Shown: in pieces, positions 25,854 to 43,430 of the stretch
Layout of the letters: the number at the start of each line of letters is the position of its first letter
How positions within the stretch are numbered: the stretch's first letter is position 1
Source of the DNA: an uncultured Bacteroidota bacterium
Lineage (GTDB): Bacteria; Bacteroidota; Bacteroidia; Chitinophagales; Saprospiraceae
Length of the DNA: 46,329 nucleotides
Reading direction: 5' to 3'
NCBI GenBank assembly: GCA_937870795.1
Contig: CALMWS010000039.1
Span: 1 to 46,329, forward strand
The notes under the pieces: model-generated
The model's input: the letters and a program-made list of their open reading frames with translations, nothing else
Databases searched by the model: none
What the model was told of the DNA's origin: nothing
Translations under genes and position numbers: made by a program

Positions 25854-25871
25854 TCCTCTAAATGTAAAACA

Positions 25872-27194: not shown

Positions 27195-27255
27195 TTAAAA
27201 GCCCTCCTATTACTAAACTTCAGTTATATTCTTACCATTGAATAAATCCCTCAAG

Positions 27256-27274
27256 AGTGTAAAAAAGTATTAAA
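27256..27274 (-). promoter_or_regulatory. 19-nt motif TTTAATACTTTTTTACACT, site 1 (reverse orientation)
   Basis: It is identical over 19 nt to sites 2 (31939-31957) and 3 (37771-37789). Here it reads on the minus strand, 62 nt before the GTG at 27337 of the hybrid kinase gene. Orientation relative to the regulated gene is the same as that of site 2 relative to the OmpR-type regulator gene. It is a candidate operator for that regulator, which would make the kinase autoregulated. Confidence 0.55.
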
Positions 27275-27336
27275 AAGCCAGGGTGGCAGGCAATGAAGCT
27301 AGTCCAATTGTCAATTTGACAGTATCTTGCATTAAA

Positions 27337-30300
27337 GTGCAAATTTTGAGGCTTCAATTCATCATTTATATCATTTTAGGATGTTTTTTTGAGACAACGC
27401 TCAATGGTCAGTCCTTTAAGACTCGATTTGAATACTTGAGTGATGATCAAGGACTTCCTCAAAATCATGTGTTTAGTGTATCACAGGACAGTGATGGGTT
27501 TATTTGGTTTTGCACCATGGGTGGATTAGCCAAGTACGATGGCTTTCAATTCACCAATTTCACATTTGACGAGCAGGATTCAACCACCGTATCTGCCTCC
27601 TACATTGACCAGATTCTGGAAGACAGCAAACACAGGTTTTGGGTTGGCACCTTGAATGGCTTTAACCAAATGGATCGCAAAACAGGCAAATTCAAGAGGT
27701 ATTTGCACAATGAAAATGATGTCAATAGCCTTGGCCACAATAAAACCAAAGGACTGGCAGAAAGAAAGGATGGGAAAATATGGATCGTACATAATGATGG
27801 TATTGATTGTTTTGATCCTCAAACAGAAAAATTTGTCCACTATTTACATGATGATTTTGAAATCAGCAGACATTCCGGACACGTTTTTATTGACCGCAAA
27901 AACCGAATTTGGGTAATTGGCACCAAAGGCGTTTTTTTGGTAAATGAATCCAGACAAAACCTTGAATATATAGGGCAACCTGCCGTTAAATCTGAAATAC
28001 CATTGGAAGGAAGGAAGTTTTATGAAGACTCTCAAGGCAATTTGTGGGTGGGATTCAACAGGTGTTTGGCACTATTCAATACTGAGAACCGAAGTTTTAC
28101 CTTATCTCCCATAGGCAAAAATGGGCTCGATGTATCCCAAGTACTGGAATACCCGAAAGGAACACTGGCGATTGGCACACACGGAGATGGATTAATCATG
28201 TATTCGCTTAAAGAAAGAAAAATCATACAACAATACAATTATTCTCCTTCAGATCCCGGGGGTATTAGCGGGTCATCCATTTACAGCATGCATGTTGACA
28301 AACAAAACAATCTATGGTTAGGCTTATTTTATGGGGTCAATAAAATAAATCCGGGCAGCGATCGATTTCCATTGATGACACATGCACCGGGCATACACAA
28401 CCTGGCCAATTATAGTTTGTTGTTGCACCAGGACAACTATGGTGGCATCTGGAACAACACGATGAAGGGACTCTTTTATATAAAGAATTCCAGTTCACCT
28501 TATATTTCAATGTTAAGCCCCCCTCAATTCTCACAGGGCTTTAATAATTTGAAACCCATATTTTCCGACAATCAAAAATTGTATTTCAGCATACTCAACA
28601 AGGGTATTTTTGCTTATTCTTTTTCGAAGAAAACCATAGAAACCATTGCCCCTGATAAAAATCTGGGGGAATTGGTAGTGCAAAAATTTGAAATACACCC
28701 AAAAAAACCTACTGCTCTTTTTATAGGATGTGTGCAGGGACTTTGCAAGCTGGATCTTTTATCCGGTGATACAACCTGGCTGCTGCCCAAGCGCATGGAT
28801 CAAAGACTTTCGGGTAATTATGTGGGACGATTTTATTCTCCTGATGGAAATCAATTTTATTTTATTAATACAGAAAAACTTTGTGTCTATGACTGGGATA
28901 AGAAGACAATGCGATCCGTATCCTCACCTTATCCCATAAAGGGTACAATTTTTAATATTAAGAAAAACAACAACCAACTATGGATTGCCAGCACCTATCA
29001 AATATACATTTATAATATAAATAATAATACATGGAAAAATGTAGTTCGCAAGGATGACGGATCACGTCTTCCTTCTGCGGGTTTGGAAATAGACAAACAG
29101 GGTTACATTTGGAGCATTACTGATTCCGAAATCAGTAGGATTGATCCGAATGGAAAGGTAACACACCACTATCACTCTCCCACAGGATTTACAAATGGAA
29201 ACAATGCACAAGGCAGGGATGGTACGTTGTTTTTTGGAGGCAATGAAGGGGGTGTGATATTTCATCCTGAACGATATTTCAAAGATACGATTGCACCTAA
29301 AATAATATTTACAGGCCTTGAAATTGCCAACAAAGCTGAAGACCTTGGCATACAAAATGAATACGTAAGCACATTCCGCCTGAAGCACAACCAAAAAACA
29401 TTCTCTCTCAATTACGCTGCTTTGCATTTTATCAACAGAGAAGCCATTCGTTATCACTACAGGCTTCTGGGCTTCGACAAGGACTGGATTTACGGGGGAA
29501 GTAAAAGAAGGGTCACCTACACCAATCTCTCACCGGGAACATATACCTTTGAAGCGATTGCCACAACTGAAGATGGGATAAGTTCTAAAATGCCATTAAA
29601 AATTACCATCATTATAGAAGCCCCTTTTTACCGAACATGGGCTTTCTATGCTTTGATTGCTTTCCTTATAGCTTTGCTTTCCTATCTTTTTTACGATATA
29701 AGAAAGAAAGCCGCTGAAGCGGAAAAGAAGAGAGAACTGGCAGAACAAAATGCCAATTACAAATCTATGTTTATGGCCAATATGAGCCATGAAATACGGA
29801 CACCCATGAATGCCATTGTAGGCCTGAATCAATTGTTGATGGACACGCCTTTGACACCCAAACAAATGGAATATGTAAAGGCCATCAATATTTCATGTGA
29901 AAATATGCTTTGGATAATTAATGATATTCTGGATCAGGCCAAAATTGAAAGCGGTAAATACACCATTGTTCACAAAGATTTCAACCTGATGCAAATGTTG
30001 GAACAAATCAGAACTTTATTTGCGGCCAGGGCGGGCGAAAAGGATTTGGTTTTTGATCTAAAGATAGATAACGATGTCCCTCTCTTATTGAAAGGAGATC
30101 AGGTGCGCTTATTTCAAATTCTTGCCAATCTTCTGGGCAATGCTATTAAGTTCACCAACCAAGGTAAAGTAAATTTACAGGTAGGTATTTACCAGACCAT
30201 CTCCAATGGTTGTGAATTGCGATTTGATGTAAGAGATACCGGCATTGGTATACCCAGAGAAAAGCTGGAAGAAATTTTTGATAGCTTTAGCCAGATTCAG

Positions 30301-30867
30301 GAATTAGAAAATACGGGTAATCAGGGAACCGGACTTGGCTTGTCTATTGTAAAACAGTTGTGCTCTTTGTTGGGTGGTAAAATCAGCGTAGAGTCAACCC
30401 ACGGTCAGGGATCCAACTTCACTTTAATCCTGCCTTTCGAATTTGCAAGTCAGCATAATATTATCCAGGAGGGCAAGACCAAAGCAAAGACCATGTATGG
30501 ACTCCATATTTTACTGGTAGAAGATGCCCCTCTAAACCAATTGGTGGCCTCAGAATTGCTTTACAAACACTTTGAAGGCTTAAATCTGGATATTGTTTCA
30601 AATGGAGAAGAAGCCTTGAAAAAATGCAGTACTACCCAATATGATGTAGTTTTAATGGATGTTAAAATGCCGGTTATGGATGGCTTAGAGGCAACGCGTC
30701 AATTGCGTAAGATGGGATACAGTTATCCCATACTGGGATTAACTGCTAATGCCATACCCCAACAGCTGGAGGAATGTAAAAAAGCAGGTATGGATGAAAG
30801 TACAACCAAACCCATTAAAATAGGGGAATTAGTGGAAAAAATACAAGCCTTGGTAAACCGTGATTGA
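27337..30867 (+). CDS. Hybrid sensor kinase: propeller sensor, Y_Y_Y, HisKA, ATPase, receiver
   Basis: The product is about 1176 aa from GTG 27337; a GTG at 27283 or a TTG at 27346 are alternatives, none of them ATG. The order is signal peptide or N-terminal TM, two-component propeller repeats with xFxxLSxxxGLxxNxVxxIxxDxxGxxWxxT-like blades (FEYLSDDQGLPQNHVFS; later blades less regular), a Y_Y_Y domain (HYHYRLLGFDKDW, YTNLSPGTYTFE) and TM helix WAFYALIAFLIALLSYLFY. Then come HisKA (MANMSHEIRTPMNA, His at 29788-29790), HATPase (LLGNAIKFT, DTGIGIP, GTGLGLSIVK) and a receiver with Asp at 30658-30660 (VVLMDVKMPVMDG). It lacks the AraC-type HTH of typical hybrid systems, so the signal must pass on to HPt. 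Ligand unknown. Confidence 0.9.
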   Translation: MQILRLQFIIYIILGCFFETTLNGQSFKTRFEYLSDDQGLPQNHVFSVSQDSDGFIWFCTMGGLAKYDGFQFTNFTFDEQDSTTVSASYIDQILEDSKHRFWVGTLNGFNQMDRKTGKFKRYLHNENDVNSLGHNKTKGLAERKDGKIWIVHNDGIDCFDPQTEKFVHYLHDDFEISRHSGHVFIDRKNRIWVIGTKGVFLVNESRQNLEYIGQPAVKSEIPLEGRKFYEDSQGNLWVGFNRCLALFNTENRSFTLSPIGKNGLDVSQVLEYPKGTLAIGTHGDGLIMYSLKERKIIQQYNYSPSDPGGISGSSIYSMHVDKQNNLWLGLFYGVNKINPGSDRFPLMTHAPGIHNLANYSLLLHQDNYGGIWNNTMKGLFYIKNSSSPYISMLSPPQFSQGFNNLKPIFSDNQKLYFSILNKGIFAYSFSKKTIETIAPDKNLGELVVQKFEIHPKKPTALFIGCVQGLCKLDLLSGDTTWLLPKRMDQRLSGNYVGRFYSPDGNQFYFINTEKLCVYDWDKKTMRSVSSPYPIKGTIFNIKKNNNQLWIASTYQIYIYNINNNTWKNVVRKDDGSRLPSAGLEIDKQGYIWSITDSEISRIDPNGKVTHHYHSPTGFTNGNNAQGRDGTLFFGGNEGGVIFHPERYFKDTIAPKIIFTGLEIANKAEDLGIQNEYVSTFRLKHNQKTFSLNYAALHFINREAIRYHYRLLGFDKDWIYGGSKRRVTYTNLSPGTYTFEAIATTEDGISSKMPLKITIIIEAPFYRTWAFYALIAFLIALLSYLFYDIRKKAAEAEKKRELAEQNANYKSMFMANMSHEIRTPMNAIVGLNQLLMDTPLTPKQMEYVKAINISCENMLWIINDILDQAKIESGKYTIVHKDFNLMQMLEQIRTLFAARAGEKDLVFDLKIDNDVPLLLKGDQVRLFQILANLLGNAIKFTNQGKVNLQVGIYQTISNGCELRFDVRDTGIGIPREKLEEIFDSFSQIQELENTGNQGTGLGLSIVKQLCSLLGGKISVESTHGQGSNFTLILPFEFASQHNIIQEGKTKAKTMYGLHILLVEDAPLNQLVASELLYKHFEGLNLDIVSNGEEALKKCSTTQYDVVLMDVKMPVMDGLEATRQLRKMGYSYPILGLTANAIPQQLEECKKAGMDESTTKPIKIGELVEKIQALVNRD

Positions 30868-31216
30868 TCTCTCAACGCTTTTTGGTTTATTTGATGATGA
30901 AGCTTTAGTAGTTAAGTTCCTTTCATTGTTTCAAAAAGAAGTGCCACTGTTGATGGTTCAGCTAGAAAATAATATTTTAGAAAAGGAACCTGAAAAAGCC
31001 AATATCAATGCACATACTATAAAAAGTCAGCTCAAATATCTTGGGGCCACCGATGCAATAAAACTGGCAGAAAGTCTTGAGCATGCATGTGAACCTAACG
31101 CGGGTTATTCAGTAGAAAAACAGCTGGAAACACTGGAGGCATTGAAAAAAGAAATTACTTTAGTACTGCTGTGCACTCAAAACTGGCTCAACGGAGCAAA
31201 GATTGTCAAGCCTTAA
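30860..31216 (+). CDS. Stand-alone histidine phosphotransfer (HPt) protein
   Basis: The product has 118 aa. It is a four-helix HPt protein: FDDEALVVKFLSLFQKEVP, then INAHTIKSQLKYLGA with the likely phospho-His52, then LAESLEHACE. Its start overlaps the end of the hybrid kinase gene by 8 nt, so the two are translationally coupled. It should take the phosphate from the kinase receiver and give it to a response regulator, the obvious candidate being the OmpR-type protein encoded convergently and overlapping its 3' end by 11 nt. Confidence 0.88.
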   Translation: MIDLSTLFGLFDDEALVVKFLSLFQKEVPLLMVQLENNILEKEPEKANINAHTIKSQLKYLGATDAIKLAESLEHACEPNAGYSVEKQLETLEALKKEITLVLLCTQNWLNGAKIVKP

Positions 31217-31895
31217 CAACCATCTGATAGCCACTGCCATGGATGTTGAGAAAAGAAATTCGGCCATCTTCACCCAAGTAAGTCCTAAGCTTGCTTACAT
31301 AAACATTTAAACTGCGCTCCCTGAAATTGTGCTCATCATCCCAAATGAGTTTCAAAGCCATGTCCCTTTCAATGATCCCGTCCGCAGCATCGCAAAAAAG
31401 CTTCAGTAGCTTGGCTTCAATGGCACTCATTCGCTGAATCCTATCTTCATTTTTTAATTCACGGGTAGAAGCATTAAATTCGTAGCCTCCTATCTGATAA
31501 ATTTGCGCCTCACCCTTTTTACGGGAGGGAGCCTCTACCCTTCTCAATATGGCCTGTACCCTTAGATGTAGTTCCTGCATACTGAAGGGTTTTGTAATGT
31601 AATCATCAGCCCCCAATTCCAATCCCTGTATTCTCTTTTCCTTTTCAATCTCACCGGTGAGAAATAAAAATGGGATCTCTGGCTGAAGCAATTTCATTTC
31701 TGATGCCAATTCAAATCCTGTTTTTAACGGCATACGCACATCCAGGATACAAAGACCATAGGATTGCTTTTTAAATGATTCAAGACCTTCAAATGCATTG
31801 TGGAAAAGATCACAATTAAAACCCTTGGCTTCAAGGTATTCTTTCACCAGTGGACTCAGGGTACGATCGTCGTCAACCATTAAAATTCTTGTCAT
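31206..31895 (-). CDS. OmpR/PhoB-type response regulator, probable end of the phosphorelay
   Basis: The product has 229 aa from ATG 31895, where MTRILMVDDD starts the receiver; a longer frame begins at 32030 in the divergent promoter and is unlikely. The receiver has D8-D10, phospho-Asp52 (LCILDVRMP), T of FLFLTGE and K of YITKPF. The output is a winged helix (YEFNASTRELK, MSAIEAKLLKLF, LNVYVSKLRTYLGEDG, IHGSGYQMV). It is placed tail to tail with the HPt gene and head to head with the TANFOR-like gene, and a copy of the 19-nt motif lies 44 nt before its start. It probably binds that motif and controls itself, the kinase and two surface-protein operons. Confidence 0.9.
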   Translation of the reverse strand: MTRILMVDDDRTLSPLVKEYLEAKGFNCDLFHNAFEGLESFKKQSYGLCILDVRMPLKTGFELASEMKLLQPEIPFLFLTGEIEKEKRIQGLELGADDYITKPFSMQELHLRVQAILRRVEAPSRKKGEAQIYQIGGYEFNASTRELKNEDRIQRMSAIEAKLLKLFCDAADGIIERDMALKLIWDDEHNFRERSLNVYVSKLRTYLGEDGRISFLNIHGSGYQMVVKA

Positions 31896-31938
31896 GAGCA
31901 GAGGCTGTTGAAATACAAAAATAATCAAAGACCCGTGT

Positions 31939-31986
31939 TTTAATACTTTTTTACACTTTTTACCTTTTACTAACATATTTCCCGCA
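31939..31986 (+). promoter_or_regulatory. 19-nt motif, site 2, with extended promoter match
   Basis: TTTAATACTTTTTTACACT (31939-31957) followed by an extended match to site 3: TTTTTA, then TTTT, CT, ACAT, TTT and C at the same spacing. It lies 50-97 nt before the ATG of the TANFOR-like gene and 44 nt from the divergent regulator start, so one site can serve both. The T-rich direct repeats look like a PhoB/OmpR-type tandem site plus a basal promoter. Confidence 0.6.
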
Positions 31987-32035
31987 TCAGCCATTGCCAA
32001 CTTTGCCTTGCAATTAACTACAAACATCAACTGTC

Positions 32036-35000
32036 ATGCGATTACAAACATTTTTTAAGCTGGGTCTGATATCCCTTGTGTTGCTGCCCACAGTGCTGGT
32101 TAGCCAAAATATAAATGTAAGTCTCATCTTTCCCCCTCCGGCACCCAGTTCTGTGGAGGCACTTGTAAAACTCAACGGACAAGCCATCATTACGCTGTCA
32201 AATGCAGGTGCTCAAAGCCATAGCCTGAAATTACTGGTAAGCCTGGATGGAAACAACGGTGTAAAAGCCAATATGACCAATGACTATGTTCCCTCTACAA
32301 TCATCACCCTCGGTGCCGGAGAGAGCAAGGTTTTGACAGGAACCATGTTAAATGCCCATTATGCCAATCTGACTGAAAATCACCTTCAATACAGTGGTGT
32401 TACCAAAAATACCATTCTACAAACTGAAAAACTTCCGGAAGGCGTATATACCATCTGCGTGAAAGCTTACGATTACAATACCGGTGTACTTTTATCCTCT
32501 TCCTTTGGAGGATGCACCACCATCATGGTCACTCAATACGACCCTCCTATGATTTTACTTCCAACGCATAACAGCACCGTCCTTGCGTCACAACCCACCT
32601 TTACCACAATGAGTTGGACTCCCTCCGGCATTCCCGGAACAACCCGATATAAAATGGAATTGATAGACATGGATCTCAATCACCTGCTCAATCCCAATGA
32701 AGCTTTCGACAATCCGGCCATTATCCTGCATTTTAAAAAGGATAATTTAATTACCACCAATTTCGTTTACGATGCCTCGCTGCCCAAGTTGACCCCCGGA
32801 CATCACTATGCCATGCGCGTCACAGCCTATGATCCACAAAACAAACTGAATTACAAAAACAAAGGAAAAAGCCCTGTCATTTCTTTTCTTTATAAATTTC
32901 CTGAGATCAACAACAATCCTCCTAAGAACAATGGACTGGAGCCCGGAAACTTTGATGTTAAAAACAATAACCAAAATGTATACAGCTTGGCTTCCTGTCA
33001 GCAAAATATCAACATTGCCGACAACGTAGCAATAGCCGGCAATGGCATTATAAAAAAATACGATGTTATAACCATCGGTCAGTTTAAACTCAAATTGACA
33101 GAAGTCAACTGGAACAACACAACGCTGTCAGGTAAAGGAAAAATCATACAATCCTGGTTCAAAGTACCTATACTGGTAGAATTTACAGATCTGAAAATCA
33201 ATAAAAATAAAATTGTAATCGACGGCAGCGCTATTGGCAGAAATGACAACAATGTGCCTTCAGACTGGATCAATGATCTGGGCAACATCTCCTTTGGAGG
33301 GCCCCAGATCGAAGCTTTATTCAACAAACTTTTGGGCAGCCCGCAAAGAGTAATGACCTGGCCTTATGAAAACATGGATAGCATTGGACTGGGCATGCCC
33401 ATAGGCATAAAAAGAAATTTTGGAGGAGCCGACCAGACAATAGCCATCGTAGGTATGGTGTTTTCTGCCAAGGGTGCCGGTTTAAATGCGGTTTCACAGG
33501 TCAAAATGCCTGCTTACAATCAGAAAATCTCTGTAGCAGCATCCGGAGTTTGCATCGATGAAAAAGGCTTTACCAAAGAAGCTTTATTGTATTTGATCGA
33601 AGAACTGACCCTCAATCAAAACGGCAATCTTAAACTCAAATTATTCGAAGGAGAACCGGGCAATCTCCAAAAAGGGACCTACCTCAAAATGGATACCAAA
33701 GGGTTCGCCGGCATGCAGTTGGATGGAAAATTTGTAATTGACAGCAAGGTTGCCAAACCGGTAGACCCTCAACTTTCATCAGTGGATGCGGTGTTTAAGA
33801 TTACCGTTGAGAACCCATCAAATTTTATTCTCAACAACATCAGTGTCACCCCTTTCACCCTGGTGAAATTGCCGGAATTCCAAATGACAGTTTCCGGTCT
33901 GTCAATTGATCATTCAGACCTCCAAAATCCTGATGGCATTACCTTTCCATCACCGGGATACAATGATAAAGGCAATCTATGGCAAGGCTTTTACCTTAAA
34001 AATATTACTGTGAAAATTCCTTCGAGGTTCCACAACAATCAAACCATAAGCTGCCAGCATTTTGTCATTGACCAGGCAGGTTTCAGCGGAATGGTGGATG
34101 TGCCGATAGTTTTTGATAAGAACAAAGGAGAAATGGGAGAGAAAAAGTGGAAATACTCCATGAAAGGTCTTTACATCAAGATCATTAAAAATCAATTCAA
34201 CGAAGGCAAATTCAACGGGGAAATCAGGGTGCCTGTAACTTCAAAAGATTTGTATCTAACGTACCATGCCGCCATGAGCCTAAATGCGAATAATAAACTA
34301 CTATATAATCTTACCCTTACCAATCAAAATGACATAACCTTCCCTGCCATATTTGCCAAAGGCAGCATCAATCCGGATACTGAACTGCAATTGGAAGAAG
34401 AAGGCAATGGTTTCGATCCCGAACTTCATCTTTATGCGACCCTCACATTTAACCGAACCTACAGCTACGAAATTCAGGGTTTCAATTTCGACATTTCAGA
34501 TGTAGAGGTGCAAGATCTGATCATTTCTAAAGAGGGTGTTGCCATGGGTCCCAACGGAGGATTTTCGCACAGCTATGAATCCGACCAAAGAAGCCTGAAT
34601 GGCTTTGACATAAGCATAGATACCTTCTATTTTAAAAAGAAAAATCAAATGTATGTAGGCTTTTCTATTTCACTGGTTGGTGAAGACAATGCAGTGGGTG
34701 GGAATGCAGGGTTTACTGTCAATACCTCCTATCAACCCGACCACATGATGACGGGAGCCATTCAATTGCAGGAAATAGGCATCCATGGAGATATTTCCGT
34801 AGCAACCATCGATGGTAAAATTGTCATCATGGAAGATGATCCTGTATACGGCGATGGCTTCAAAGGAAGTGTTTCCGTAAAATTAAATCTGGGGGAAAAG
34901 GGTAGCTCTATTGGAGGGTCAGTAAACATCATCTTCGGCAAAATGCCTGCCCTTAACAATGTAGACCCATACCGTTACTTCTTCTTTAAAGGTGAAATGT

Positions 35001-37648
35001 TTGCAGGTAACGGTATACCCCTTACTGCCTCTTTGAGAATGTATGGCTTGATGGGTGGCATCTATTACAATATGATCCAGGATGACCCATGGGTAGATCC
35101 GGTACCCTACAAAGAATCCAATGCCGATTCCAAATTTGGTCTGCTGGCCGGAGTAGACATTGGTCTTGTTGCCAAACGTGCGTTCCATGCCAAACCACAA
35201 TTTAAAGTGCAATTCGGAACACAGTCTGGACTTGATATCATTCAGATATTTGGCGATGCCTATGCCTTTACAGAGTGGCAGCCCACCTTCATACCCTATG
35301 ATGAAAGTACTACCCCTATCCACATCAGCATGAATGCCAAATTGGATTTTAAGAAAAAAGTATTCGATTTTGATAGTGGCATCTCCATTAAATACCCTGT
35401 AAGCACTCCGCTGATTGAAGCTGAGGGAAGCATTAAAATGCATGTTGCAGGAGCAAAAAAATGGTTTATAAAAATCGGTGAACCCGGCCCTTCCACCAAT
35501 ATTGGGGTCAAACTTACTTTCCTGCCTGTAAAGAAAAAACATTATTTTATGGCAGGGTATGATTTACCGGGCATGCCGCCTATACCCCAGGAAATTCAGG
35601 AAAAACTGGACAAACCCTATATCGGAGACCGTACCGATGTATCAGATGGAGAAAACGAAAATCTGCGATTTGCATTGGGCAGTTTAATGGATTTCAGTAC
35701 AGGTGATTTGAATGCCTGGATTTTTTACGCCAACTTCGCCGCCATTATGGGTTATGATGTTGCCATGAGCAACGGCTGGGGAGATTGTGGTTTCAACAGC
35801 TGGTACATCGAAGGCAGAGCCTATGCCATGCTTTCTGCAGAAGTAGGCATCAAAGCTAAAATTTTCAAAAAAGAGAGAAAATTCAAAGTCGCCTCATTGA
35901 CAGCCGGAATCATAGCAGACGCAGCTTTGCCCAACCCCACCTGGTTTCATGGCACTGTATTCGGAGAAGCTACCTTCCTTGGCATCATTAAAGGAAAATT
36001 TACCTTTGAAGTGGATTACGGCACCAAATGCAGCTACAATCCAAACCCTAAAAATACAGACGCCCTCGAAGGGTTGAAGTATGTACAGGACATTAGTCCA
36101 AAGGGCAATAATGTAAAAGTATTTACCGATCCTGAAATTTCGCTTTTGTTCAGCAGCAATGAGAATAAGATTTATACATTACAGGAATACGAAAACGACA
36201 AACTTATTGAGCGCAAATTCCGCTTTCCGGTCAAACAGGCAATTGTAAAAATTGATGATGCTGCCAGCAAAGAAAATGGTAAAATACTCGCCAAATGGGG
36301 CGACAATGCTTCATACGAAGGGTATTGGAAAACGAATAATACAGGTGATATTTTAAGTTACTATTCCAAAAAAGCATTACCTCCAAAAACCAAGATCCGT
36401 GTAATTGCCGAAGTTGAAGTTTGGGAAAATATAGGTGGCAATTTCAAATCCATCGAGGCGAATGGAACCAAAAAAGAATTGGTATTTACCACCGCCGAGG
36501 ATCCCGATAGAATTGTGGATGAAAACATCGAAGAACTCTATCCGGCCAACGGTCAAAGATACTACCTCCAGAATGATCGGTTCCAAAAGGGGTACATTCA
36601 ACTGAAAGATGATCAGGACAACATTTTTGTATCCAATGGCCCTGCCATGATGGCACCAGCATTCAAAGTTAAGTTGATACCGGTCGGAGGAGGACAGGTG
36701 TTGGAAGGCAAATTTGAGGGATATCAAAACAATCGCGTATCTTTTTCACATCCCAAACTAGCCAACAACAAAACCTATGTATTCCAGCTTATCAAAGTCA
36801 ATTTGGGCGGTACATTTACCAGTAACGAAAACATAGAAAAGAAAGAACTTCAATTCACAGCTGCAGAATTCAAAACCAATTTAACACAGGAACAAAAATT
36901 ATTGAATGAATTAAAAACATCCATCAAGGAAAAAGAAATTTATAAGTTTATCTTCAGGACATCCATGTACAACAGCCTGAACGACAAATTGTCTAAAATC
37001 AATGAAGGTACAGGTCAGCTGCAATGGATTGGTCCAAATGCCACCGCCATCAAAGCTACTTTTTCTGGTGGAATGGAAGCTTTTGATGCAGCCGATGTAG
37101 CACAATTGCATCCTGAGTGGTATCTGGGTCAAACAACCGGTGGTCCCGCCATTCCGGTAACTGACAAAGGAAAGACTTTTGCCGTAAATTATCAATACGA
37201 AAAGATAATCAAGCCGTGGAATGAAATTTTAATCCCGGAAGCTTACCCTAATCTGCAACCTCTAAAAATAAACTACAATGCCTATATTTTGAATGCACAG
37301 CCCCTGATCAGTCAACAGGAAATTAATGCTATGCTAAAACAGCCTGCTAATCCGGGCTTCAACATAGCCTCTCCACCTGCTATGGTAAGTCAGGAAATCA
37401 TGATGACAGATTGTGGCATAGCACACATGCAATACAACCAGTTCATGGCTAAAATGCTGGACCCTGAAACCAAGGGAAAAGCTGCCCTAAACAATATTAT
37501 GGGCAAACCCAAACTTTATACCTTTTTCATGAGCTTTATGTTTGATGCTGATTTCCGCAATGCATTTAAACCACCGGTAAAAGGAAGCTATCATTTAATC
37601 CTTCACCGGGATCCGGCATATCACTACCGTAAAACCTGGAAATTGTAA
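32036..37648 (+). CDS. Giant exported protein, TANFOR-like
   Basis: The product has 1870 aa. Signal peptide about 1-24 (LLPTVLVSQN). Residues about 25-160 resemble the TANFOR (Tannerella forsythia) domain: INVSLIFPPPAP, ALVKLNGQAIITLSNAG, a LPEGVYTICVKAYDY block and GCTTIMV; an Ig/Fn3-like segment follows (PPMILLPTHNSTVLASQPTFTTMSWTP). The central ~1000 residues are beta-rich repeats with no family I recognise. The C-terminus (about 1750-1870) contains KAALNNIMGKPKLYTFFMSFMFDADFRNAF and no T9SS sorting domain, so the route to the surface is unclear. It is a separate transcription unit with its own terminator. It shares its promoter motif with the Fn3/barrel operon that follows, which suggests co-production as one surface assembly. 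Confidence 0.75.
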   Translation: MRLQTFFKLGLISLVLLPTVLVSQNINVSLIFPPPAPSSVEALVKLNGQAIITLSNAGAQSHSLKLLVSLDGNNGVKANMTNDYVPSTIITLGAGESKVLTGTMLNAHYANLTENHLQYSGVTKNTILQTEKLPEGVYTICVKAYDYNTGVLLSSSFGGCTTIMVTQYDPPMILLPTHNSTVLASQPTFTTMSWTPSGIPGTTRYKMELIDMDLNHLLNPNEAFDNPAIILHFKKDNLITTNFVYDASLPKLTPGHHYAMRVTAYDPQNKLNYKNKGKSPVISFLYKFPEINNNPPKNNGLEPGNFDVKNNNQNVYSLASCQQNINIADNVAIAGNGIIKKYDVITIGQFKLKLTEVNWNNTTLSGKGKIIQSWFKVPILVEFTDLKINKNKIVIDGSAIGRNDNNVPSDWINDLGNISFGGPQIEALFNKLLGSPQRVMTWPYENMDSIGLGMPIGIKRNFGGADQTIAIVGMVFSAKGAGLNAVSQVKMPAYNQKISVAASGVCIDEKGFTKEALLYLIEELTLNQNGNLKLKLFEGEPGNLQKGTYLKMDTKGFAGMQLDGKFVIDSKVAKPVDPQLSSVDAVFKITVENPSNFILNNISVTPFTLVKLPEFQMTVSGLSIDHSDLQNPDGITFPSPGYNDKGNLWQGFYLKNITVKIPSRFHNNQTISCQHFVIDQAGFSGMVDVPIVFDKNKGEMGEKKWKYSMKGLYIKIIKNQFNEGKFNGEIRVPVTSKDLYLTYHAAMSLNANNKLLYNLTLTNQNDITFPAIFAKGSINPDTELQLEEEGNGFDPELHLYATLTFNRTYSYEIQGFNFDISDVEVQDLIISKEGVAMGPNGGFSHSYESDQRSLNGFDISIDTFYFKKKNQMYVGFSISLVGEDNAVGGNAGFTVNTSYQPDHMMTGAIQLQEIGIHGDISVATIDGKIVIMEDDPVYGDGFKGSVSVKLNLGEKGSSIGGSVNIIFGKMPALNNVDPYRYFFFKGEMFAGNGIPLTASLRMYGLMGGIYYNMIQDDPWVDPVPYKESNADSKFGLLAGVDIGLVAKRAFHAKPQFKVQFGTQSGLDIIQIFGDAYAFTEWQPTFIPYDESTTPIHISMNAKLDFKKKVFDFDSGISIKYPVSTPLIEAEGSIKMHVAGAKKWFIKIGEPGPSTNIGVKLTFLPVKKKHYFMAGYDLPGMPPIPQEIQEKLDKPYIGDRTDVSDGENENLRFALGSLMDFSTGDLNAWIFYANFAAIMGYDVAMSNGWGDCGFNSWYIEGRAYAMLSAEVGIKAKIFKKERKFKVASLTAGIIADAALPNPTWFHGTVFGEATFLGIIKGKFTFEVDYGTKCSYNPNPKNTDALEGLKYVQDISPKGNNVKVFTDPEISLLFSSNENKIYTLQEYENDKLIERKFRFPVKQAIVKIDDAASKENGKILAKWGDNASYEGYWKTNNTGDILSYYSKKALPPKTKIRVIAEVEVWENIGGNFKSIEANGTKKELVFTTAEDPDRIVDENIEELYPANGQRYYLQNDRFQKGYIQLKDDQDNIFVSNGPAMMAPAFKVKLIPVGGGQVLEGKFEGYQNNRVSFSHPKLANNKTYVFQLIKVNLGGTFTSNENIEKKELQFTAAEFKTNLTQEQKLLNELKTSIKEKEIYKFIFRTSMYNSLNDKLSKINEGTGQLQWIGPNATAIKATFSGGMEAFDAADVAQLHPEWYLGQTTGGPAIPVTDKGKTFAVNYQYEKIIKPWNEILIPEAYPNLQPLKINYNAYILNAQPLISQQEINAMLKQPANPGFNIASPPAMVSQEIMMTDCGIAHMQYNQFMAKMLDPETKGKAALNNIMGKPKLYTFFMSFMFDADFRNAFKPPVKGSYHLILHRDPAYHYRKTWKL

Positions 37649-37651
37649 AAT

Positions 37652-37685
37652 AAAAGCCGTCTGATTGATTTCAGACGGCTTTTTA
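37652..37685 (+). terminator. Rho-independent terminator after the TANFOR-like gene
   Basis: AAAAGCCGTCTGA-loop-TCAGACGGCTTTTT: a perfect 13-bp stem with a 6-nt loop ending in five T, 4 nt after the stop codon. The flanking A and T runs could make it work in both directions. Confidence 0.9.
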
Positions 37686-37770
37686 ATTTGCAGAACAATG
37701 GCATTACGGGTGTCCTATTTGACTACTATTTAAATCACCGGATTGAATAAAACGGTGACTGGGTTTCCAA

Positions 37771-37818
37771 TTTAATACTTTTTTACACTTTTTATTTTTT
37801 GCTTACATGTTTACTCGT
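37771..37818 (+). promoter_or_regulatory. 19-nt motif, site 3, with extended promoter match
   Basis: TTTAATACTTTTTTACACT (37771-37789) plus the extended similarity to site 2 (about 48 nt in total). It lies 41-88 nt before the ATG at 37859, a spacing similar to site 2. An inverted pair TGAGAC...GTCTCA (37823-37842) follows. It is the probable promoter/operator of the four-gene operon 37859-43430. Confidence 0.6.
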
Positions 37819-37858
37819 GCTTTGAGACGCAATTTTGTCTCATCAAATACTACAGACT

Positions 37859-39925
37859 ATGAGACGGCAATTTAATTTCATGACCTTATTGTTGGGGTTG
37901 TTGACAGCCGGAACACTTCCGGCCCAAAATCAACCATCCAACGTCCACTTGATCTCCCGCGTAACAAAAAATGAGATCAAACTTAGATGGGCTCCCACCG
38001 ATGCGGAAACCTGGAGGGAGAGCACTGTAAAAGGTTATTATTTATTGAGAGCAACGGTGCCCACAGACACACTGGGTCTGGCAACCTATGCGTATGATAC
38101 ACTGGCAAACATGATATTACCACTTCCATCTGCTCAATGGGAAAAGTTGGTTGATGAAGATACCTATTGTGCAGCAGCCTGGACCTCTCTATATGAAAAA
38201 AAACCAGCATCATCCGGAAACTTGATACAACAAATTAAACAACAGGACGACATTCTCAATAAGGCTTATTTTGTGGCTATGCTGGCAGCCGATCAATCCC
38301 AAAAAGCTGCCAATGCCATGGGTTTACAATTTACAGACAAAACCGCAGTAACCGGAAAACAATACATTTATAAAGTGGGCATTCATGGGCTAAAAAATGA
38401 CTACTCCACAACATATGCAGATACGAAAACAATTTTCAATCTTGCAAGTCCCCTTCCACCTGTGTCTATCAGTAAAGAAAAATCCATTACCATCAAATGG
38501 GACCCTTCTGCGGATCAATGGGGTTATACTACCTACCATGTAGAAAGATCAGAGTCTCTTGAAGGTTCCTATAAGCGTCTTACGAGTACTCCCTTCTTAC
38601 ATTTGCAAAATCCCAATGGGAACAGTTCTGAGTATAGTTATTATACAGATACAATTGGCGTCAATTATAAAGTTTTTTATTACAGATTGGTAGGCATTGA
38701 TCCTTTTGGCGAAGAAAGTATACCTTCAGTAGCCGTAGCAGGGATGGGCAAGGACCTAACCCCACCTCCCAGTCCTGAACATTTGACTGCTACTACAATT
38801 GAAAACAAAATGGTTAAACTGGAATGGTCACAGCCAGCTTGCCCGGACATCAAAGGATATCAAATAAGCAGAGCAGAAGATTTTGAAGCCACTTTTACTC
38901 CTCTACATGCAGATCTATTACCCATCAACACACTGGAGTTTATTGACTCCACCCCGAATCCGGCACTCAACAATTATTACCTGGTCAGTGTAGTGGATAC
39001 CGCAGGCAATGTAAACCACTCTGAGAGCATTTATGCATTCTTCAAAGACAACACGCCACCTCCAACACCTACCCTGCTTACAGGACGCATCGACAGCACC
39101 GGTCTGGTCACCTTGAAATGGAATAAAGTGGCGGATCCAGCATTGATTGGCTACAGGGTTTACTACTCCAACAGCCCTAACCATACCTTTATTATGCGCA
39201 GTGGGGACCTCATTACAGACACCTTTTATCAGGAAAAATTATTTTTAAATACCTTGAGTGAGAGAATCCTTTACAAAGTAGCAGCCGTTGATATAGGTTA
39301 TGGCCATTCTCTGCCCACGGCAGCTCTGGAACTTAAGAAACCGGATAAAATCAAACCTGCTTCGGGCTGCTTCAAAAGGGTAGAAGTGATCGACCAAAGT
39401 GCTATGCTCACCTGGGCCCCCGGCTCCTCCTCAGATTTGGTCTTACAAGAACTTTGGAGAGAAAACGACTTACTTCAAAAAACAAAAATGGCCAGCTTCG
39501 ATAACGCTACTACCACATATACCGACACTACGCTTGCAGAAGGACAAAGCTACACCTATTATTTACGCAGCCGGGACGATGATGGTCTGTATTCCGACTT
39601 TTCCACTCCTGTAAGTGTTCAAAGTTCACAAAAGGAATTGGCAGCCGTAAATGATCTGCAGGCAATCTGGAATGAAGAAAGCAAAAGCATCTCTCTCAAA
39701 TGGTACTGCCCGACGAAGAATGTTCAATATATCATATACAGATCCATAGGTGATGGAGCTCTTATCACTTACGACAACACAAGTACAACAGATTTTACCG
39801 ATAATTATGTATCAGAGAGTACAAAATACAGATACGCCGTGGTGGTCATGGATGAAAACGGAAGGCAGTCTGGTCTATCCGCTATCACCGAAGTAATGGC
39901 AGGAAAAAGTCAGTTGACAAAATAA
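37859..39925 (+). CDS. Exported fibronectin type III-like repeat protein
   Basis: The product has 688 aa from ATG 37859 (MRRQFNFMTLL); a TTG at 37835 is not needed. Signal peptide with GTLPAQN. At least five Fn3-like modules of ~95 residues follow, with IKLRWAP, ITIKWDPSADQWGYTTYHVERS, VKLEWSQPACPDIKGYQISRA, VTLKWNKVADPALIGYRVYYS and ISLKWYCPTKNVQYIIYRS. These are typical Trp/Tyr-Asp strands of the fold, linked by Pro-rich joints (DLTPPPSPEH, DNTPPPTPT). There is no sorting domain at the C-terminus. It probably sits in the periplasm or on the outer membrane and makes protein contacts, being encoded 19 nt before the barrel gene. Confidence 0.82.
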   Translation: MRRQFNFMTLLLGLLTAGTLPAQNQPSNVHLISRVTKNEIKLRWAPTDAETWRESTVKGYYLLRATVPTDTLGLATYAYDTLANMILPLPSAQWEKLVDEDTYCAAAWTSLYEKKPASSGNLIQQIKQQDDILNKAYFVAMLAADQSQKAANAMGLQFTDKTAVTGKQYIYKVGIHGLKNDYSTTYADTKTIFNLASPLPPVSISKEKSITIKWDPSADQWGYTTYHVERSESLEGSYKRLTSTPFLHLQNPNGNSSEYSYYTDTIGVNYKVFYYRLVGIDPFGEESIPSVAVAGMGKDLTPPPSPEHLTATTIENKMVKLEWSQPACPDIKGYQISRAEDFEATFTPLHADLLPINTLEFIDSTPNPALNNYYLVSVVDTAGNVNHSESIYAFFKDNTPPPTPTLLTGRIDSTGLVTLKWNKVADPALIGYRVYYSNSPNHTFIMRSGDLITDTFYQEKLFLNTLSERILYKVAAVDIGYGHSLPTAALELKKPDKIKPASGCFKRVEVIDQSAMLTWAPGSSSDLVLQELWRENDLLQKTKMASFDNATTTYTDTTLAEGQSYTYYLRSRDDDGLYSDFSTPVSVQSSQKELAAVNDLQAIWNEESKSISLKWYCPTKNVQYIIYRSIGDGALITYDNTSTTDFTDNYVSESTKYRYAVVVMDENGRQSGLSAITEVMAGKSQLTK

Positions 39926-39944
39926 CCCATCAAAAATAGTAAAG

Positions 39945-41627
39945 ATGAAATCCTTATCTCGAGTAGGGCTGCTATGCCTTTGTCTATGGGTTACCTTTCC
40001 TGTGTTGGCACAAACAGAAAACACAACGTCCAGGCCCTCACCGTGGAAATTTTCAGGCGGTCTGCAGTTGGGAACTCAATTTTACCGTGTCTATGGCATT
40101 ACCCCTCGGGTGGTCAGTCCTGCATGGAACATATATGGCAATGCAGCTATCAATTTTAAAAATGTAATTAGTGTACCTTTTTCTTTCACCCTGGGCCAAC
40201 AAGGCAATAGCGCCACCTACCCCAGTTTTAGGCAAATGGGAGTTTCTCCCAAAATGGGGGCGCTTACGCTGCACGCCGGTTGGCGAAGAATGCGTTTTTC
40301 AGATTACACACTCTCGGATCATACCTTCGCCGGTGCAGGTTTTGAATTTAATCCCGGAAAACTCAGACTGGCAGCTATGACAGGCAGACTTCGAAAAGCT
40401 GCAACAGCCAGAACCCTTGCCGGAGAAAACTACGGTGCACAATTCAAAAGAACAGCCACCGCTTTTAAGCTCGGTTATGGAACGGAAAATAGCTACCTAG
40501 ACCTCATTTTCATGAAAGCAAAAGATGATGCCGGATCTCTTCCACAATCCAAAATTGATAGCACCCTTACTGCAGCAGAAAATGCACTAGCCGGTATAAA
40601 CATGAGAATGGCAGCATCTTCCAACTTCAGTTGGTATGGTGAATTTGTGGTGAGTGCATTCACCCGAAATGTAGAATCTTCGATCATTGATCAGGGTAGT
40701 GGGCTCTCATCATTTTTCGGAAAAGTCCTTCAGCCCCGATTGTCAACCAAGACCAACTATGCACTGAAAACGGGAGTGGATATAGGCAGCCAGGCGCTAA
40801 GATGCAAATTGCAATACGAACGAATTATGCCCGAATTTGAAACCATGGGCGCCTTTTTCTTTATGAATGATATGGAAAACATAAGCATCCTTCCCAACCT
40901 TTCTCTCTTTGATTATAAATTGCGCATCAACGGCCAGCTAGGCATTCAGCGCAATAACCTGCTAAATACAAGGAGTGAAACCACCAAAAGATTATTGGGA
41001 AATGGCAATATAAGTTTTCAAGCAAATGAAAAATTTGGGATTGATTTCACCTTCAACAGCATCAACATCAATCAGGAACAAGCCCGGATCAGATTCGCCG
41101 ATTCTATCCGAATAGCCATGGTAACCAGGAGCTACATGTTGGGTCCTAGATGGATGTGGCTCAAAGACAGCACCCTGATTCAAACTTTGACAACATCGGT
41201 CAACTACCAGGAACTCAACGATCGCAATCCGTATACACGATTATATACCAATATGAAAACATGGTTTGCTCTTGCTCAATACAGCTACAGCATGCCGCTG
41301 AGAAAAACTACGTTGTCAGCAGGAATCAATTACAACATCATTGACTTACCCGAGCTAAGAACCACCAGAATGGGGGTAAGCATTGGCTATGACAAAAGCA
41401 ATAAAGCCAATAGCCTCACAGTATCTTCTTCTCTTAGTTATAACCTTAGCTTTCTGGAATCCGGGCTGGACGGAAGTCTGGTTTCAGGCAATCTGACCGC
41501 ATCCATAGTTCCCCTGAAAAGACACACCCTGCAAGCCGGGTTTAATATGCTAATCAACCATTCATCTCAATATGACAGTTACACAGAAATCATTGCTCAA
41601 TTGACCTATGGTTATCAATTTCAATAA
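39945..41627 (+). CDS. Putative outer-membrane beta-barrel protein
   Basis: The product has 560 aa. Signal peptide about 1-23 (FPVLAQTE). The rest is a long run of alternating amphipathic strands with aromatic girdles (WKFSGGLQLGTQFYRVYG, SVPFSFTLGQQ, GALTLHAGWRRMRFSDYTLSD). It ends QLTYGYQFQ, a C-terminal strand with Phe before the last residue, as in outer-membrane barrels. It is larger than PorP/SprF proteins (~300-350 aa) and I do not place it in that family. It lies between an Fn3 protein and a T9SS cargo in one operon, and may anchor or display these partners or the TANFOR-like protein. Confidence 0.7.
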   Translation: MKSLSRVGLLCLCLWVTFPVLAQTENTTSRPSPWKFSGGLQLGTQFYRVYGITPRVVSPAWNIYGNAAINFKNVISVPFSFTLGQQGNSATYPSFRQMGVSPKMGALTLHAGWRRMRFSDYTLSDHTFAGAGFEFNPGKLRLAAMTGRLRKAATARTLAGENYGAQFKRTATAFKLGYGTENSYLDLIFMKAKDDAGSLPQSKIDSTLTAAENALAGINMRMAASSNFSWYGEFVVSAFTRNVESSIIDQGSGLSSFFGKVLQPRLSTKTNYALKTGVDIGSQALRCKLQYERIMPEFETMGAFFFMNDMENISILPNLSLFDYKLRINGQLGIQRNNLLNTRSETTKRLLGNGNISFQANEKFGIDFTFNSININQEQARIRFADSIRIAMVTRSYMLGPRWMWLKDSTLIQTLTTSVNYQELNDRNPYTRLYTNMKTWFALAQYSYSMPLRKTTLSAGINYNIIDLPELRTTRMGVSIGYDKSNKANSLTVSSSLSYNLSFLESGLDGSLVSGNLTASIVPLKRHTLQAGFNMLINHSSQYDSYTEIIAQLTYGYQFQ

Positions 41628-41645: not shown

Positions 41646-43430
41646 ATGAAAACAATCACTTCTACCTTTTTATTTTACTTTCTTGTCCTGTATGGACAAA
41701 ACCTGAATGCGCTGAACATCACCATTTCACCACAGAATTTTAGTTGCGGAAGTTACATTGTACAAGTTCAAACAGCTTGTAGTTTTGATGGCATCCTTAA
41801 TGCCAGCCTACCGGCAGGTCCGCTTGGCATTCAAGTCACAAATATAAGTCCTGTGGTTGCCGGCACTTGCACACTCAGCTTGTTGGTGGAACCGGGTGCC
41901 CCTGAAAACACCGATCTTATTTTTGAAGTAATAAGCAGCAATGACCCAACAGGCTGTGCCCTCGCCGGGCAAACCCAAATTGTATCTCTGGTGACAAACT
42001 GCGCCTGCAATCTGGCGATAGAAGCTGAATTCAGTGATGAATCGTGTTACCAGTGTCAAAACGGAAATATTGATTTAATTATCTCCAATGGAAAAAATCC
42101 TCAATATTCATGGTCTAATGGATCGAATAATGAAGATTTAGAAAACCTTAGCCCCGGCAATTATACAGTTACTATAACCGATGGCAGTGTATGTGAAGCT
42201 ACTGCCAATTTCACCATTGATCCTTATATTTGCAGCGGTTTCAATATTTTTGCAAGTCAGCAGGAAAATAATTGCGCAGGTGGTCAATCAGCTTCTTTGC
42301 AAATCGAAGGCCTCAGCAATATGAGCAGCTCCTTTAGCGTAGCCTGGAATACAGGCTTAAATACCTTTGCCATAGATAGTCTTACTGAAGGAACTTATTC
42401 AGTTATAGTGACCGACAACGACTTTTGTACAGAAACCGCAACATTCACCCTCACAGATCCACCAGCTATTGTGGCAGCTGGTCAAAGCATAACCAACTTC
42501 AGCAATCTTACCCAAAACGGTATGATTACCATTTCAGCCAATGGTGGTACAGGAAACCTTATCTATGAAATTCTGGATGGAAATACTGTGTTTGCTCAAA
42601 ACAATACAGGGATGTTTGGCAACCTTACACCGGGTTGTTATTCGGTAAAGATTATAGATGGCAATTTATGTTATTTCGAAATCCCAAATCTCTGTGTTGA
42701 ATTGGAGTGCCTTCCACTTACCATTCATACTACTGTCTCAGATGAAAGCTGCAGCGGTTTTGTGGATGGAAGTATCGTTGTTGATTCCTTGTCATCCGGT
42801 ATCTCTGCCTTTACCTGCGAATGGAATACTGGCCAAAATACAAATGTGATAGATTCTTTAAGTCCCGGCAATTACACAGTGATCGTTACTGACAATTTTG
42901 GGTGCGAATCCAATGGCTCCTTTGCTGTGGGAGGTGTACTACCCATAAGCATTATCATCGACAGTATTCAGGCGCAAACATCAGCCGCTGCCGGTAGCAT
43001 TTTTGCCAATGCTACAGGAGGACACGGGAACTTTCAGTATTTGTTGTTGCAAAACAATGATACGATAGCTGTTCAGACGAATGGTACTTTTACCGGACTC
43101 AATGCGGGATGTTACCAAATGATAGCTGAAGATCCTACAGGGTGTTATACTGAAATAAATGATGTATGTGTAGGTTCCACAACCTCCAACAAAGATTGGC
43201 TCTGGGAAAAAATGAACATTTACCCCAATCCGGCCATGGATGCCGTGCATTTTTCTCAAGACATTCCTTCTGCCACGGTCATTGTTATAGGAACAGATGG
43301 CAAAATTTGGTTAAACATGCCATTCAGCCAGCGAATGGATGTTGGGCAGATCCCAACAGGAACTTACATTGTGCAAATTAAGGATGGCGACCATCTCTGG
43401 AATCAACTTCTGGTCATCAACCGATCTTAA
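41646..43430 (+). CDS. T9SS cargo with SprB-like repeats and type A sorting domain
   Basis: The product has 594 aa. Signal peptide about 1-22. Then three SprB-like repeats with the hallmark SPGNYTVTITDGSVCEA, TEGTYSVIVTDNDFCTET and SPGNYTVIVTDNFGCES, each preceded by a SWSNG or EWNTG segment. Similar looser repeats (LTPGCYSVKIIDGNLC, LNAGCYQMIAEDPTGC) alternate with them. The last ~75 residues (MNIYPNPAMDAVHF, GTYIVQIKDG, LLVINRS) form a type A T9SS sorting domain. SprB repeats occur in surface adhesins used for gliding. It is the last gene of the operon, 18 nt after the barrel gene, and is followed by a strong terminator. Confidence 0.87.
   Translation: MKTITSTFLFYFLVLYGQNLNALNITISPQNFSCGSYIVQVQTACSFDGILNASLPAGPLGIQVTNISPVVAGTCTLSLLVEPGAPENTDLIFEVISSNDPTGCALAGQTQIVSLVTNCACNLAIEAEFSDESCYQCQNGNIDLIISNGKNPQYSWSNGSNNEDLENLSPGNYTVTITDGSVCEATANFTIDPYICSGFNIFASQQENNCAGGQSASLQIEGLSNMSSSFSVAWNTGLNTFAIDSLTEGTYSVIVTDNDFCTETATFTLTDPPAIVAAGQSITNFSNLTQNGMITISANGGTGNLIYEILDGNTVFAQNNTGMFGNLTPGCYSVKIIDGNLCYFEIPNLCVELECLPLTIHTTVSDESCSGFVDGSIVVDSLSSGISAFTCEWNTGQNTNVIDSLSPGNYTVIVTDNFGCESNGSFAVGGVLPISIIIDSIQAQTSAAAGSIFANATGGHGNFQYLLLQNNDTIAVQTNGTFTGLNAGCYQMIAEDPTGCYTEINDVCVGSTTSNKDWLWEKMNIYPNPAMDAVHFSQDIPSATVIVIGTDGKIWLNMPFSQRMDVGQIPTGTYIVQIKDGDHLWNQLLVINRS

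What the first reader, a model, noticed from the sequence alone, without database searches (positions are those of the whole stretch)
27256..37818. Four-step phosphorelay with an identical 19-nt motif at its own genes and at two surface-protein operons
TTTAATACTTTTTTACACT occurs, without a mismatch, three times: 27256-27274 (minus) before the hybrid kinase, 31939-31957 between the OmpR-type regulator and the TANFOR-like gene, and 37771-37789 before the Fn3/barrel/SprB operon. Sites 2 and 3 stay similar for about 48 nt and have nearly the same distance to the ATG (97 and 88 nt from motif start). For kinase and regulator the motif is upstream in reverse orientation. Gene content gives kinase, receiver, HPt, then OmpR regulator. 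A propeller-type kinase that ends in a receiver and passes on to HPt differs from the usual AraC-fused hybrid systems. Together this reads as a self-contained regulon for a surface assembly.
Basis: partly seen in the sequence, partly recalled or inferred. Interest (0 to 1): 0.78.

Follow-up and report, generated by a model that had tools for sequence, protein, structure and literature searches.

The report
Phosphorelay regulon for surface proteins
A bacterium of the Saprospiraceae type carries a relay of sensor and regulator proteins next to the surface-protein genes it most likely switches on, and the same DNA switch, at the same distance from the promoter, recurs at matching genes in many related genomes.

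Summary
In detail: the three exact motif copies are the only exact copies in the 4.5 Mb genome. The motif is a 10-bp tandem repeat, TTTWAYMCTT x2, the site shape of OmpR-family regulators (recalled). The regulator has orthologs in 27 other genomes among 398 of the family. In the loci fetched, 42 sites found without using promoter sequence lie forward of a gene; 33 have a -7-type box (AnnTTTG) at offset 40-42, 25 exactly at 41, as at window sites 2 and 3. Site plus box at <=1 mismatch occurs 39 times in 22 of 28 regulator-bearing genomes and 0 times in 28 without it. Of 15 such hits outside the first loci, 7 precede TANFOR, Fn3, barrel or SprB genes. HPt His is conserved in 21 of 21; four relatives fuse HPt to the kinase. 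Best reading: a kinase-receiver-HPt-OmpR phosphorelay activates TANFOR and Fn3/barrel/SprB promoters from a site near -61.5 and autoregulates through reversed sites. Binding, phosphotransfer and sign of regulation are untested. New variant of a known kind.

The parts
27255..27274 (-). Site 1, tandem-repeat operator in reverse orientation upstream of the kinase
   Evidence: Exact 19-mer; no gene in the forward direction within 420 nt in the map; reversed sites at 9 of the 10 kinase genes that have a site
27337..30867 (+). Hybrid sensor kinase: Reg_prop propeller, Y_Y_Y, HisKA, HATPase_c, receiver; no DNA-binding domain found; start codon uncertain
   Evidence: Pfam; translation P0008; H box SHEIRTP and receiver Asp VVLMDVKMP
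30860..31216 (+). Stand-alone HPt phosphotransfer protein
   Evidence: Pfam Hpt 33.8 bits; active-site His aligned in 21 of 21 rows
31206..31895 (-). OmpR-family response regulator (receiver + Trans_reg_C)
   Evidence: Pfam; Asp52, Lys102, Asp8, Asp9 in 28 of 28 orthologs, recognition-helix stretch RSLNVYVSKLR
31916..31923 (-). Candidate -7 box TATTTTTG of the regulator gene; the reversed site 2 would cover its -33 region (inference)
   Evidence: no fixed spacing for regulator genes in relatives
31939..31958 (+). Site 2, operator forward to the TANFOR-like gene, reversed to the regulator gene
31999..32005 (+). -7-type promoter box AACTTTG at +41 from site 2; inferred transcription start about 32010
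   Evidence: box position -12 to -5 from PMC9723704 (passages)
32036..37648 (+). Large TANFOR-like protein (1870 aa), secreted by the look of its start
   Evidence: TIGR02542 20.2 bits, below its cut-off of 67; relatives; terminator-like hairpin and T run at about 37655-37690 (by eye)
37771..37790 (+). Site 3, operator forward to the Fn3-barrel-SprB operon
37831..37837 (+). -7-type promoter box AATTTTG at +41 from site 3; inferred transcription start about 37842
37859..39925 (+). Fn3-repeat protein (688 aa)
   Evidence: fn3; conserved neighbour in relatives
39945..41627 (+).
   Evidence: No Pfam or NCBIfam family; no convincing PDB match; its 13 best genomes of 398 all carry the regulator
41646..43430 (+). 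SprB-repeat protein with T9SS type A C-terminal signal
   Evidence: SprB 46.3 bits, Por_Secre_tail 42.8 bits; terminator-like hairpin at about 43460-43490 (by eye), so the FG-GAP gene at 43580 is probably outside the unit

Best explanation
The locus encodes a dedicated four-step phosphorelay. The propeller sensor kinase autophosphorylates on His, passes phosphate to its own receiver Asp, then to the His of the separate HPt protein, then to Asp52 of the OmpR-type regulator (order inferred from domain content and fusions). The phosphorylated regulator binds two 10-bp direct repeats, TTTWAYMCTT x2, as a head-to-tail dimer. Forward sites lie at about -71 to -52 from the start of transcription (centre about -61.5), a fixed 40 nt from the -7 box, and activate the TANFOR-like gene and the Fn3-barrel-SprB operon. 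Reversed sites before the regulator and kinase genes give autoregulation of unknown sign. Shown by sequence: genes, residues, sites, spacing, co-distribution, targets on other contigs. Inferred: binding, activation, direction of phosphate flow, ligand.
For: Exact sites unique to this locus in the genome. Tandem 10-bp repeat in the matrix. Fixed -7 spacing: 33 of 42 forward sites at offsets 40-42, 6 box hits at all other offsets out to about 100. 39 composite hits at <=1 mismatch in 22 of 28 regulator genomes, 0 in 28 others. Of the 15 composite hits at <=1 mismatch outside the first loci, all opened, 7 begin with TANFOR, Fn3, barrel or SprB genes. Recognition-helix stretch RSLNVY in 27 of 28 orthologs against RSMDVF in 13 of 14 paralogs. 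HPt-kinase fusions in four loci (Pfam-checked in L153). Conserved His and Asp. Kinase ortholog in 26 of 28 regulator genomes.
Against: No experiment. The matrix was trained on the loci it scans, and the reversed matrix still gives 7 hits against 53 at score 14, as the motif is T-rich. Six of 28 regulator genomes have no composite hit at <=1 mismatch. Two of 28 lack a kinase hit at 1e-90. Only 10 of 29 kinase hits have a site of their own; one of them (G291) is forward, without a box. A TANFOR-like gene was seen in 15 of 28 regulator genomes only. Eight of the 15 outside hits lead to other genes, four of them beta-lactamase-fold hydrolases. The locus-level controls are weak: many of those loci do not reach the gene's own promoter.
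Confidence: 0.85

Rival explanations
1. The sites are real operators, but another regulator with the same distribution binds them, for example one of the related OmpR-type paralogs.
For: No binding data. Related paralogs (about 40-45% identical; called RprY-like here, not themselves scanned) are nearly universal: 194 of 199 genomes have a match at E<=1e-45.
Against: The composite site follows the regulator clade, not the near-universal paralog: 22 of 28 genomes against 0 of 28. The recognition helix differs between the groups.
Confidence: 0.07
2. The regulator represses at these sites, or activates at some and represses its own and the kinase gene.
For: Reversed site 2 would cover the -33 region of the regulator's candidate promoter in the window. 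Reversed sites have no fixed promoter spacing.
Against: Forward sites at a fixed upstream distance (about -61.5) are typical of activation (recalled); a repressor site would more often overlap the promoter.
Confidence: 0.2
3. The kinase-HPt pair feeds a different regulator, and the OmpR-type regulator answers another kinase; adjacency misleads.
For: In the window the regulator gene is convergent to kinase-HPt, so there is no shared operon. Two regulator genomes lack a kinase hit at 1e-90.
Against: Kinase ortholog in 26 of 28 regulator genomes; HPt beside the regulator even where the kinase is on another contig (L039); the same operator at kinase genes, also on other contigs (L208, L274).
Confidence: 0.09
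4. Sites 2 and 3 are a chance T-rich repeat or a recent promoter duplication without regulatory meaning.
For: T-rich motif; 38 of 48 identity between two neighbouring promoters.
Against: The same site and spacing in genomes whose regulators are 46-64% identical to this one.
Confidence: 0.01

Closest known systems
ArcB/ArcA and TorS/TorR phosphorelays (recalled; the kinase core matches the TorS, BarA and ArcB models below their cut-offs)
   Same: His-Asp-His-Asp flow onto an OmpR-family regulator that binds tandem direct repeats
   Different: HPt is a separate protein (fused in four relatives); the sensor is a Reg_prop/Y_Y_Y propeller; the regulon is surface and secreted proteins
Bacteroidota hybrid two-component systems (propeller kinase fused to AraC-type HTH; recalled)
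   Same: Reg_prop/Y_Y_Y propeller, kinase and receiver in one chain
   Different: No DNA-binding domain found in the kinase; output would pass through HPt to a separate OmpR-type regulator
RprY (NCBIfam NF051850)
   Same: Best-scoring named regulator family (246.8 bits)
   Different: Below the cut-off of 370
PorX/PorY-SigP control of T9SS (PMC4800418; outline, abstract and opening text seen)
   Same: Two-component control of T9SS-linked functions in Bacteroidota
   Different: Acts through an ECF sigma factor on secretion-machine genes; here an OmpR-type regulator with its own operator at surface-protein genes
TANFOR polymorphic toxin class (Jana et al. 2020, PMC7073777; outline, passages, sections 6 and 9 seen)
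   Same: TANFOR-like protein next to SprB-repeat, Fn3 and T9SS-signal proteins
   Different: The window protein scores below the TANFOR model cut-off and no toxin domain was recognised; 'two-component' does not occur in the paper's main text

Membership tests
His-Asp-His-Asp phosphorelay | Hybrid kinase with H box and receiver Asp | tested here: met
   SHEIRTP and VVLMDVKMP in the window kinase; both motifs found in 19 of 19 kinase ORFs printed
His-Asp-His-Asp phosphorelay | HPt with phospho-accepting His | tested here: met
   His in 21 of 21 aligned rows, 17 separate and 4 fused
His-Asp-His-Asp phosphorelay | Phosphotransfer demonstrated in that order | not testable with these tools
   needs an in vitro assay
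OmpR/PhoB-family response regulator | Receiver plus winged-helix Trans_reg_C, conserved Asp and Lys | tested here: met
OmpR/PhoB-family response regulator | Binds tandem direct repeats of about 10 bp | tested here: inconclusive
   Operators have exactly this form; binding not tested
RprY | NCBIfam NF051850 cut-off 370 bits | tested here: not met
   246.8 bits
AraC-fused hybrid two-component system | C-terminal AraC-type HTH in the kinase chain | tested here: not met
   no HTH family reported by Pfam at E<=0.001
TANFOR domain protein (TIGR02542) | Score above cut-off 67 bits | tested here: not met
   20.2 bits
TANFOR polymorphic toxin | C-terminal toxin domain and downstream immunity gene | tested here: inconclusive
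   No Pfam match in the protein; next gene is Fn3. The last 270 residues diverge more among 10 homologs, 0.15-0.22 mean identity against 0.25-0.47 before
T9SS substrate | Type A C-terminal sorting domain | tested here: met
   41646-43430: Por_Secre_tail 42.8 bits; none reported for the TANFOR-like, Fn3 or barrel proteins

The most novel reading that the evidence does not exclude
A horizontally spread or repeatedly lost phosphorelay regulon dedicated to a TANFOR-class secreted apparatus, in which the orientation of one operator encodes its use: forward at -61.5 switches on the apparatus, reversed feeds back on the relay's own genes. It would be the first transcriptional control of TANFOR-type systems that I know of.
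Probability: 0.42. Interest if true: 0.7.

Novelty: new variant of a known kind. Interest (0 to 1): 0.62.

Why it matters
TANFOR-containing proteins have been proposed as a class of polymorphic toxins, possibly exported by T9SS (PMC7073777, sections 6 and 9), and nothing on their control turned up in the searches made here. A defined operator, its promoter spacing, its regulator and its sensor make such control directly testable and let regulons be read from sequence in uncultured Saprospiraceae. The case also shows a propeller kinase that apparently passes its signal through HPt to a separate OmpR-type regulator.

Tried and rejected
Chance repeat: rejected. Simple promoter duplication: rejected, since the site recurs in distant genomes and on other contigs. 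FG-GAP/UnbV gene (43580-46279) as part of the operon: unlikely, because a terminator-like hairpin and a TATTTTTG of its own stand in between (by eye). The 3-mismatch hit at 11651 lies just inside an ORF (11645-12046) and was not pursued. Other TANFOR paralogs of this genome as further targets: no composite site at <=2 mismatches outside sites 2 and 3. A fixed promoter spacing for reversed sites at regulator genes was looked for; boxes lie at scattered offsets, four at 50-51, so no rule is claimed. PDB comparison of the barrel profile gave one weak, unrelated hit. One translation was in the wrong frame and was repeated. No structure prediction was run: the orthologs wanted for the alignment came from the fetch from genomes, which is not among the sources that tool names.

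Controls I no longer lean on: 20 loci with TANFOR homologs from genomes outside the regulator set (18 from genomes searched for the regulator, L012 and L027 from order-level genomes not searched) have no site above 13.6, and 15 barrel loci of regulator-less genomes none above 11.4. But these loci reach only 1,500 nt beyond the match, often short of the gene's promoter, and barrel genes of regulator genomes mostly lack a site nearby too (2 of 15 loci have one), as barrels are usually inside an operon. Two TANFOR loci from regulator genomes (L011, cut by its contig end, and L017) also lack the site.

Literature: ten searches ran. 'TANFOR domain' gives one paper. Saprospiraceae with two-component system and type IX secretion gives none. 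Reg_prop with HPt and Bacteroidetes gives none. Only this library was searched.
Full report
What is there. The window holds, from 27.3 to 43.4 kb, a hybrid sensor kinase (about 27337-30867 +), a stand-alone HPt protein (30860-31216 +), an OmpR-type response regulator (31206-31895 -), a large TANFOR-like protein (32036-37648 +) and an Fn3 - barrel-like - SprB/T9SS-signal operon (37859-43430 +). Against the relaxed consensus TTTWAYACTTTTTDAYACT they are again the only matches at <=1 mismatch.

What the motif is. TTTAATACTTTTTTACACTT divides into TTTAATACTT and TTTTACACTT, 8 of 10 identical. A matrix seeded with window and L039 sites and iterated over 33 loci of 28 regulator-bearing genomes settled on the same 10-bp unit twice, TTTWAYMCTT. 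Head-to-tail 10-11-bp repeats are the usual site form of OmpR/PhoB-family regulators (recalled). The reversed matrix, as control, gives 7 hits against 53 at score 14 and 23 against 59 at score 10, so T-richness yields some false hits.

Regulator distribution. An ortholog at E<=1e-62 occurs in 28 of 398 family genomes including the window's own, in 14 of 112 genera; none of the 5 other genomes of the same genus has one. The family is Saprospiraceae by inference: contig G183:C92 has the length and match coordinates of JARGNR010000145.1, titled a Saprospiraceae MAG. A quick unrooted tree groups the 14 paralogs apart from the 28 orthologs, with G341 nearest to them. The recognition-helix stretch reads RSLNVY in 27 of 28 orthologs (G285 HSMNVY), RSMDVF in 13 of 14 paralogs and RSLDVF in one.

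Promoter geometry. In these loci 47 sites score >=16.9 and lie within 420 nt of a gene start; 42 are forward to a gene. The matrix did not include downstream sequence. Of the 42, 33 have AnnTTTG at offset 40-42 after the site (25 at 41, 5 at 40, 3 at 42); all other offsets out to about 100 nt hold 6 hits together. A second element, TTAAA/TTGAA, stands at +13 to +17 (commonest letters 32, 28, 27, 23 and 22 of 42). The box resembles the Bacteroidota sigma-A -7 box TAnnTTTG at -12 to -5, described in a Flavobacterium (PMC9723704, passages), often with C in place of the first T. This puts the 20-bp site at about -71 to -52, centre -61.5, and the window transcription starts at about 32010 and 37842 (inference). 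The five reversed-only sites have no such box; one of them, L039:7105, has TTTG at the right distance and may serve a gene about 490 nt away.

Co-occurrence and controls. The composite pattern (site, 40 nt, AnnTTTG) at <=1 mismatch occurs 39 times, in 22 of 28 regulator genomes, and 0 times in 28 family genomes without the regulator; at 2 mismatches one control genome, G003, has one. At <=3 mismatches the regulator genomes hold 85 hits against 14 for the backward pattern, the control genomes 20 against 23 (summed). Six regulator genomes (G168, G285, G315, G387, G402, G413) have only weaker sites. The barrel's 13 best genomes of 398 all carry the regulator; the 14th does not, and barrel homologs at 1e-15 occur in 141 genomes, so only the closest ones follow the regulator. 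The locus-level controls are weak, as told under Tried and rejected.

Targets elsewhere. Of the <=1-mismatch composite hits, 15 lie outside the loci first fetched; all 15 were opened, with three weaker ones that I picked (L197, L209, L210) and L208. Of the 15, seven begin with TANFOR (L201, L206), Fn3 (L192, L203), barrel (L196, L202) or SprB (L200) genes; four (L198, L199, L204, L207) precede beta-lactamase-fold hydrolases, two T9SS-signal proteins (L193, L205), one a rhodanese-domain protein about 390 nt off (L194) and one a small protein (L195). Of the three picked, L197 (TANFOR and Fn3) and L210 (TANFOR) fit and L209 is unclear. L196 and L202 lie on the regulator's contig 17-20 kb away; the others lie on other contigs, which in drafts need not mean far apart. 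In G243 and G068 the target lies more than 40 kb from both contig ends, so it is truly unlinked. Spacing in these hits is by selection; the identity of the genes is not. A TANFOR-like gene was seen in 15 of 28 regulator genomes (10, 5 more).

Orientation. In the 33 loci no TANFOR, Fn3 or barrel gene has a reversed site (9, 6 and 1 forward). Regulator genes have a site in 18 loci plus the window, 19 of 28, all reversed; in many of them the site is forward to a divergent neighbour. Of 29 kinase hits, 10 have a site of their own; 9 are reversed (G000, G017, G031, G033, G146, G159, G243, G278, G419) and G291 is forward without a box. In G146, G243 and G419 a divergent ORF could explain the orientation; in the other six none was seen nearby. 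Several kinases lie inside operons behind a forward site or behind target genes (G281, G183, G089, G414).

Phosphorelay. H box and receiver Asp motifs are found in 19 of 19 kinase ORFs printed, the HPt His in 21 of 21 HPt domains of these loci, and the regulator's Asp52 and Lys102 in 28 of 28. Kinase orthologs occur in 26 of 28 regulator genomes at E<=1e-90. In L153, L155, L156 and L157 the HPt domain is joined to the kinase (Pfam-checked in L153; L155 is cut by its contig end and L157 lies in a kinase split by a stop). This supports kinase - receiver - HPt - regulator flow, which remains inferred.

Comparison. It works like ArcB/ArcA or TorS/TorR (recalled), with a split HPt and a Bacteroidota propeller sensor. 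It is not an AraC-fused hybrid (no HTH reported), not RprY by score and, by score, not a TANFOR-model protein. Jana et al. 2020 (PMC7073777, sections 6 and 9) reported TANFOR genes near SprB, Fn3 and T9SS-signal genes; 'two-component' does not occur in its main text. PorX/PorY (PMC4800418, abstract and opening text) is a different route of T9SS control. What is new here is the dedicated relay, its operator and the fixed geometry.

Limits. All is sequence evidence; the genome is a draft of 460 contigs; the matrix was trained on the loci it scans; related genomes (one genus gives 10 of 28) are not independent; the sign of autoregulation and the ligand are unknown.

Noticed in passing
L083:8994-9587 (-), L084:8960-9520 (-), L146, L147, L152, L153, L206 and others (alignment A1): A small family of apparent membrane proteins (about 175-207 aa) stands next to the regulator in 14 regulator genomes and next to the kinase in G414; 14 of these 15 have a forward operator. 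Two members tested had no Pfam match. Absent from the window's genome; weaker homologs in 4 of 28 control genomes.
   Followed up: partly
L198, L199, L204, L207, L080:16075-17271: Operators in front of beta-lactamase-fold serine hydrolases (PF00144) in three regulator genomes, G031, G033 and G159.
   Followed up: partly
L083:6331-8874 (-), L153:11323-13878 (+): Forward operators precede Peptidase_S74 proteins that are followed by proteins with T9SS signals.
   Followed up: partly
L149:2201-5191 (+): Forward operator in front of a large protein with a caspase-type Peptidase_C14 domain.
   Followed up: no
L147:5697-5726 (-): Three half-repeats in a row (TTTAATACTT TTTTACACTT TTTAATACTT) before the kinase of G291, in forward orientation and without the usual box.
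   Followed up: no
L206:5390 (-) and 5417 (+): Two back-to-back composite operators between a membrane protein-kinase-HPt cluster and a TANFOR-like gene, while the regulator is on another contig.
   Followed up: no
window 19138-27085: NiFe hydrogenase genes: HypF, small and large subunits, cytochrome b and maturation protease, directly upstream of the kinase.
   Followed up: no
window 43580-46279: FG-GAP/UnbV_ASPIC protein with T9SS signal and a TATTTTTG of its own upstream, probably outside the regulon.
   Followed up: partly
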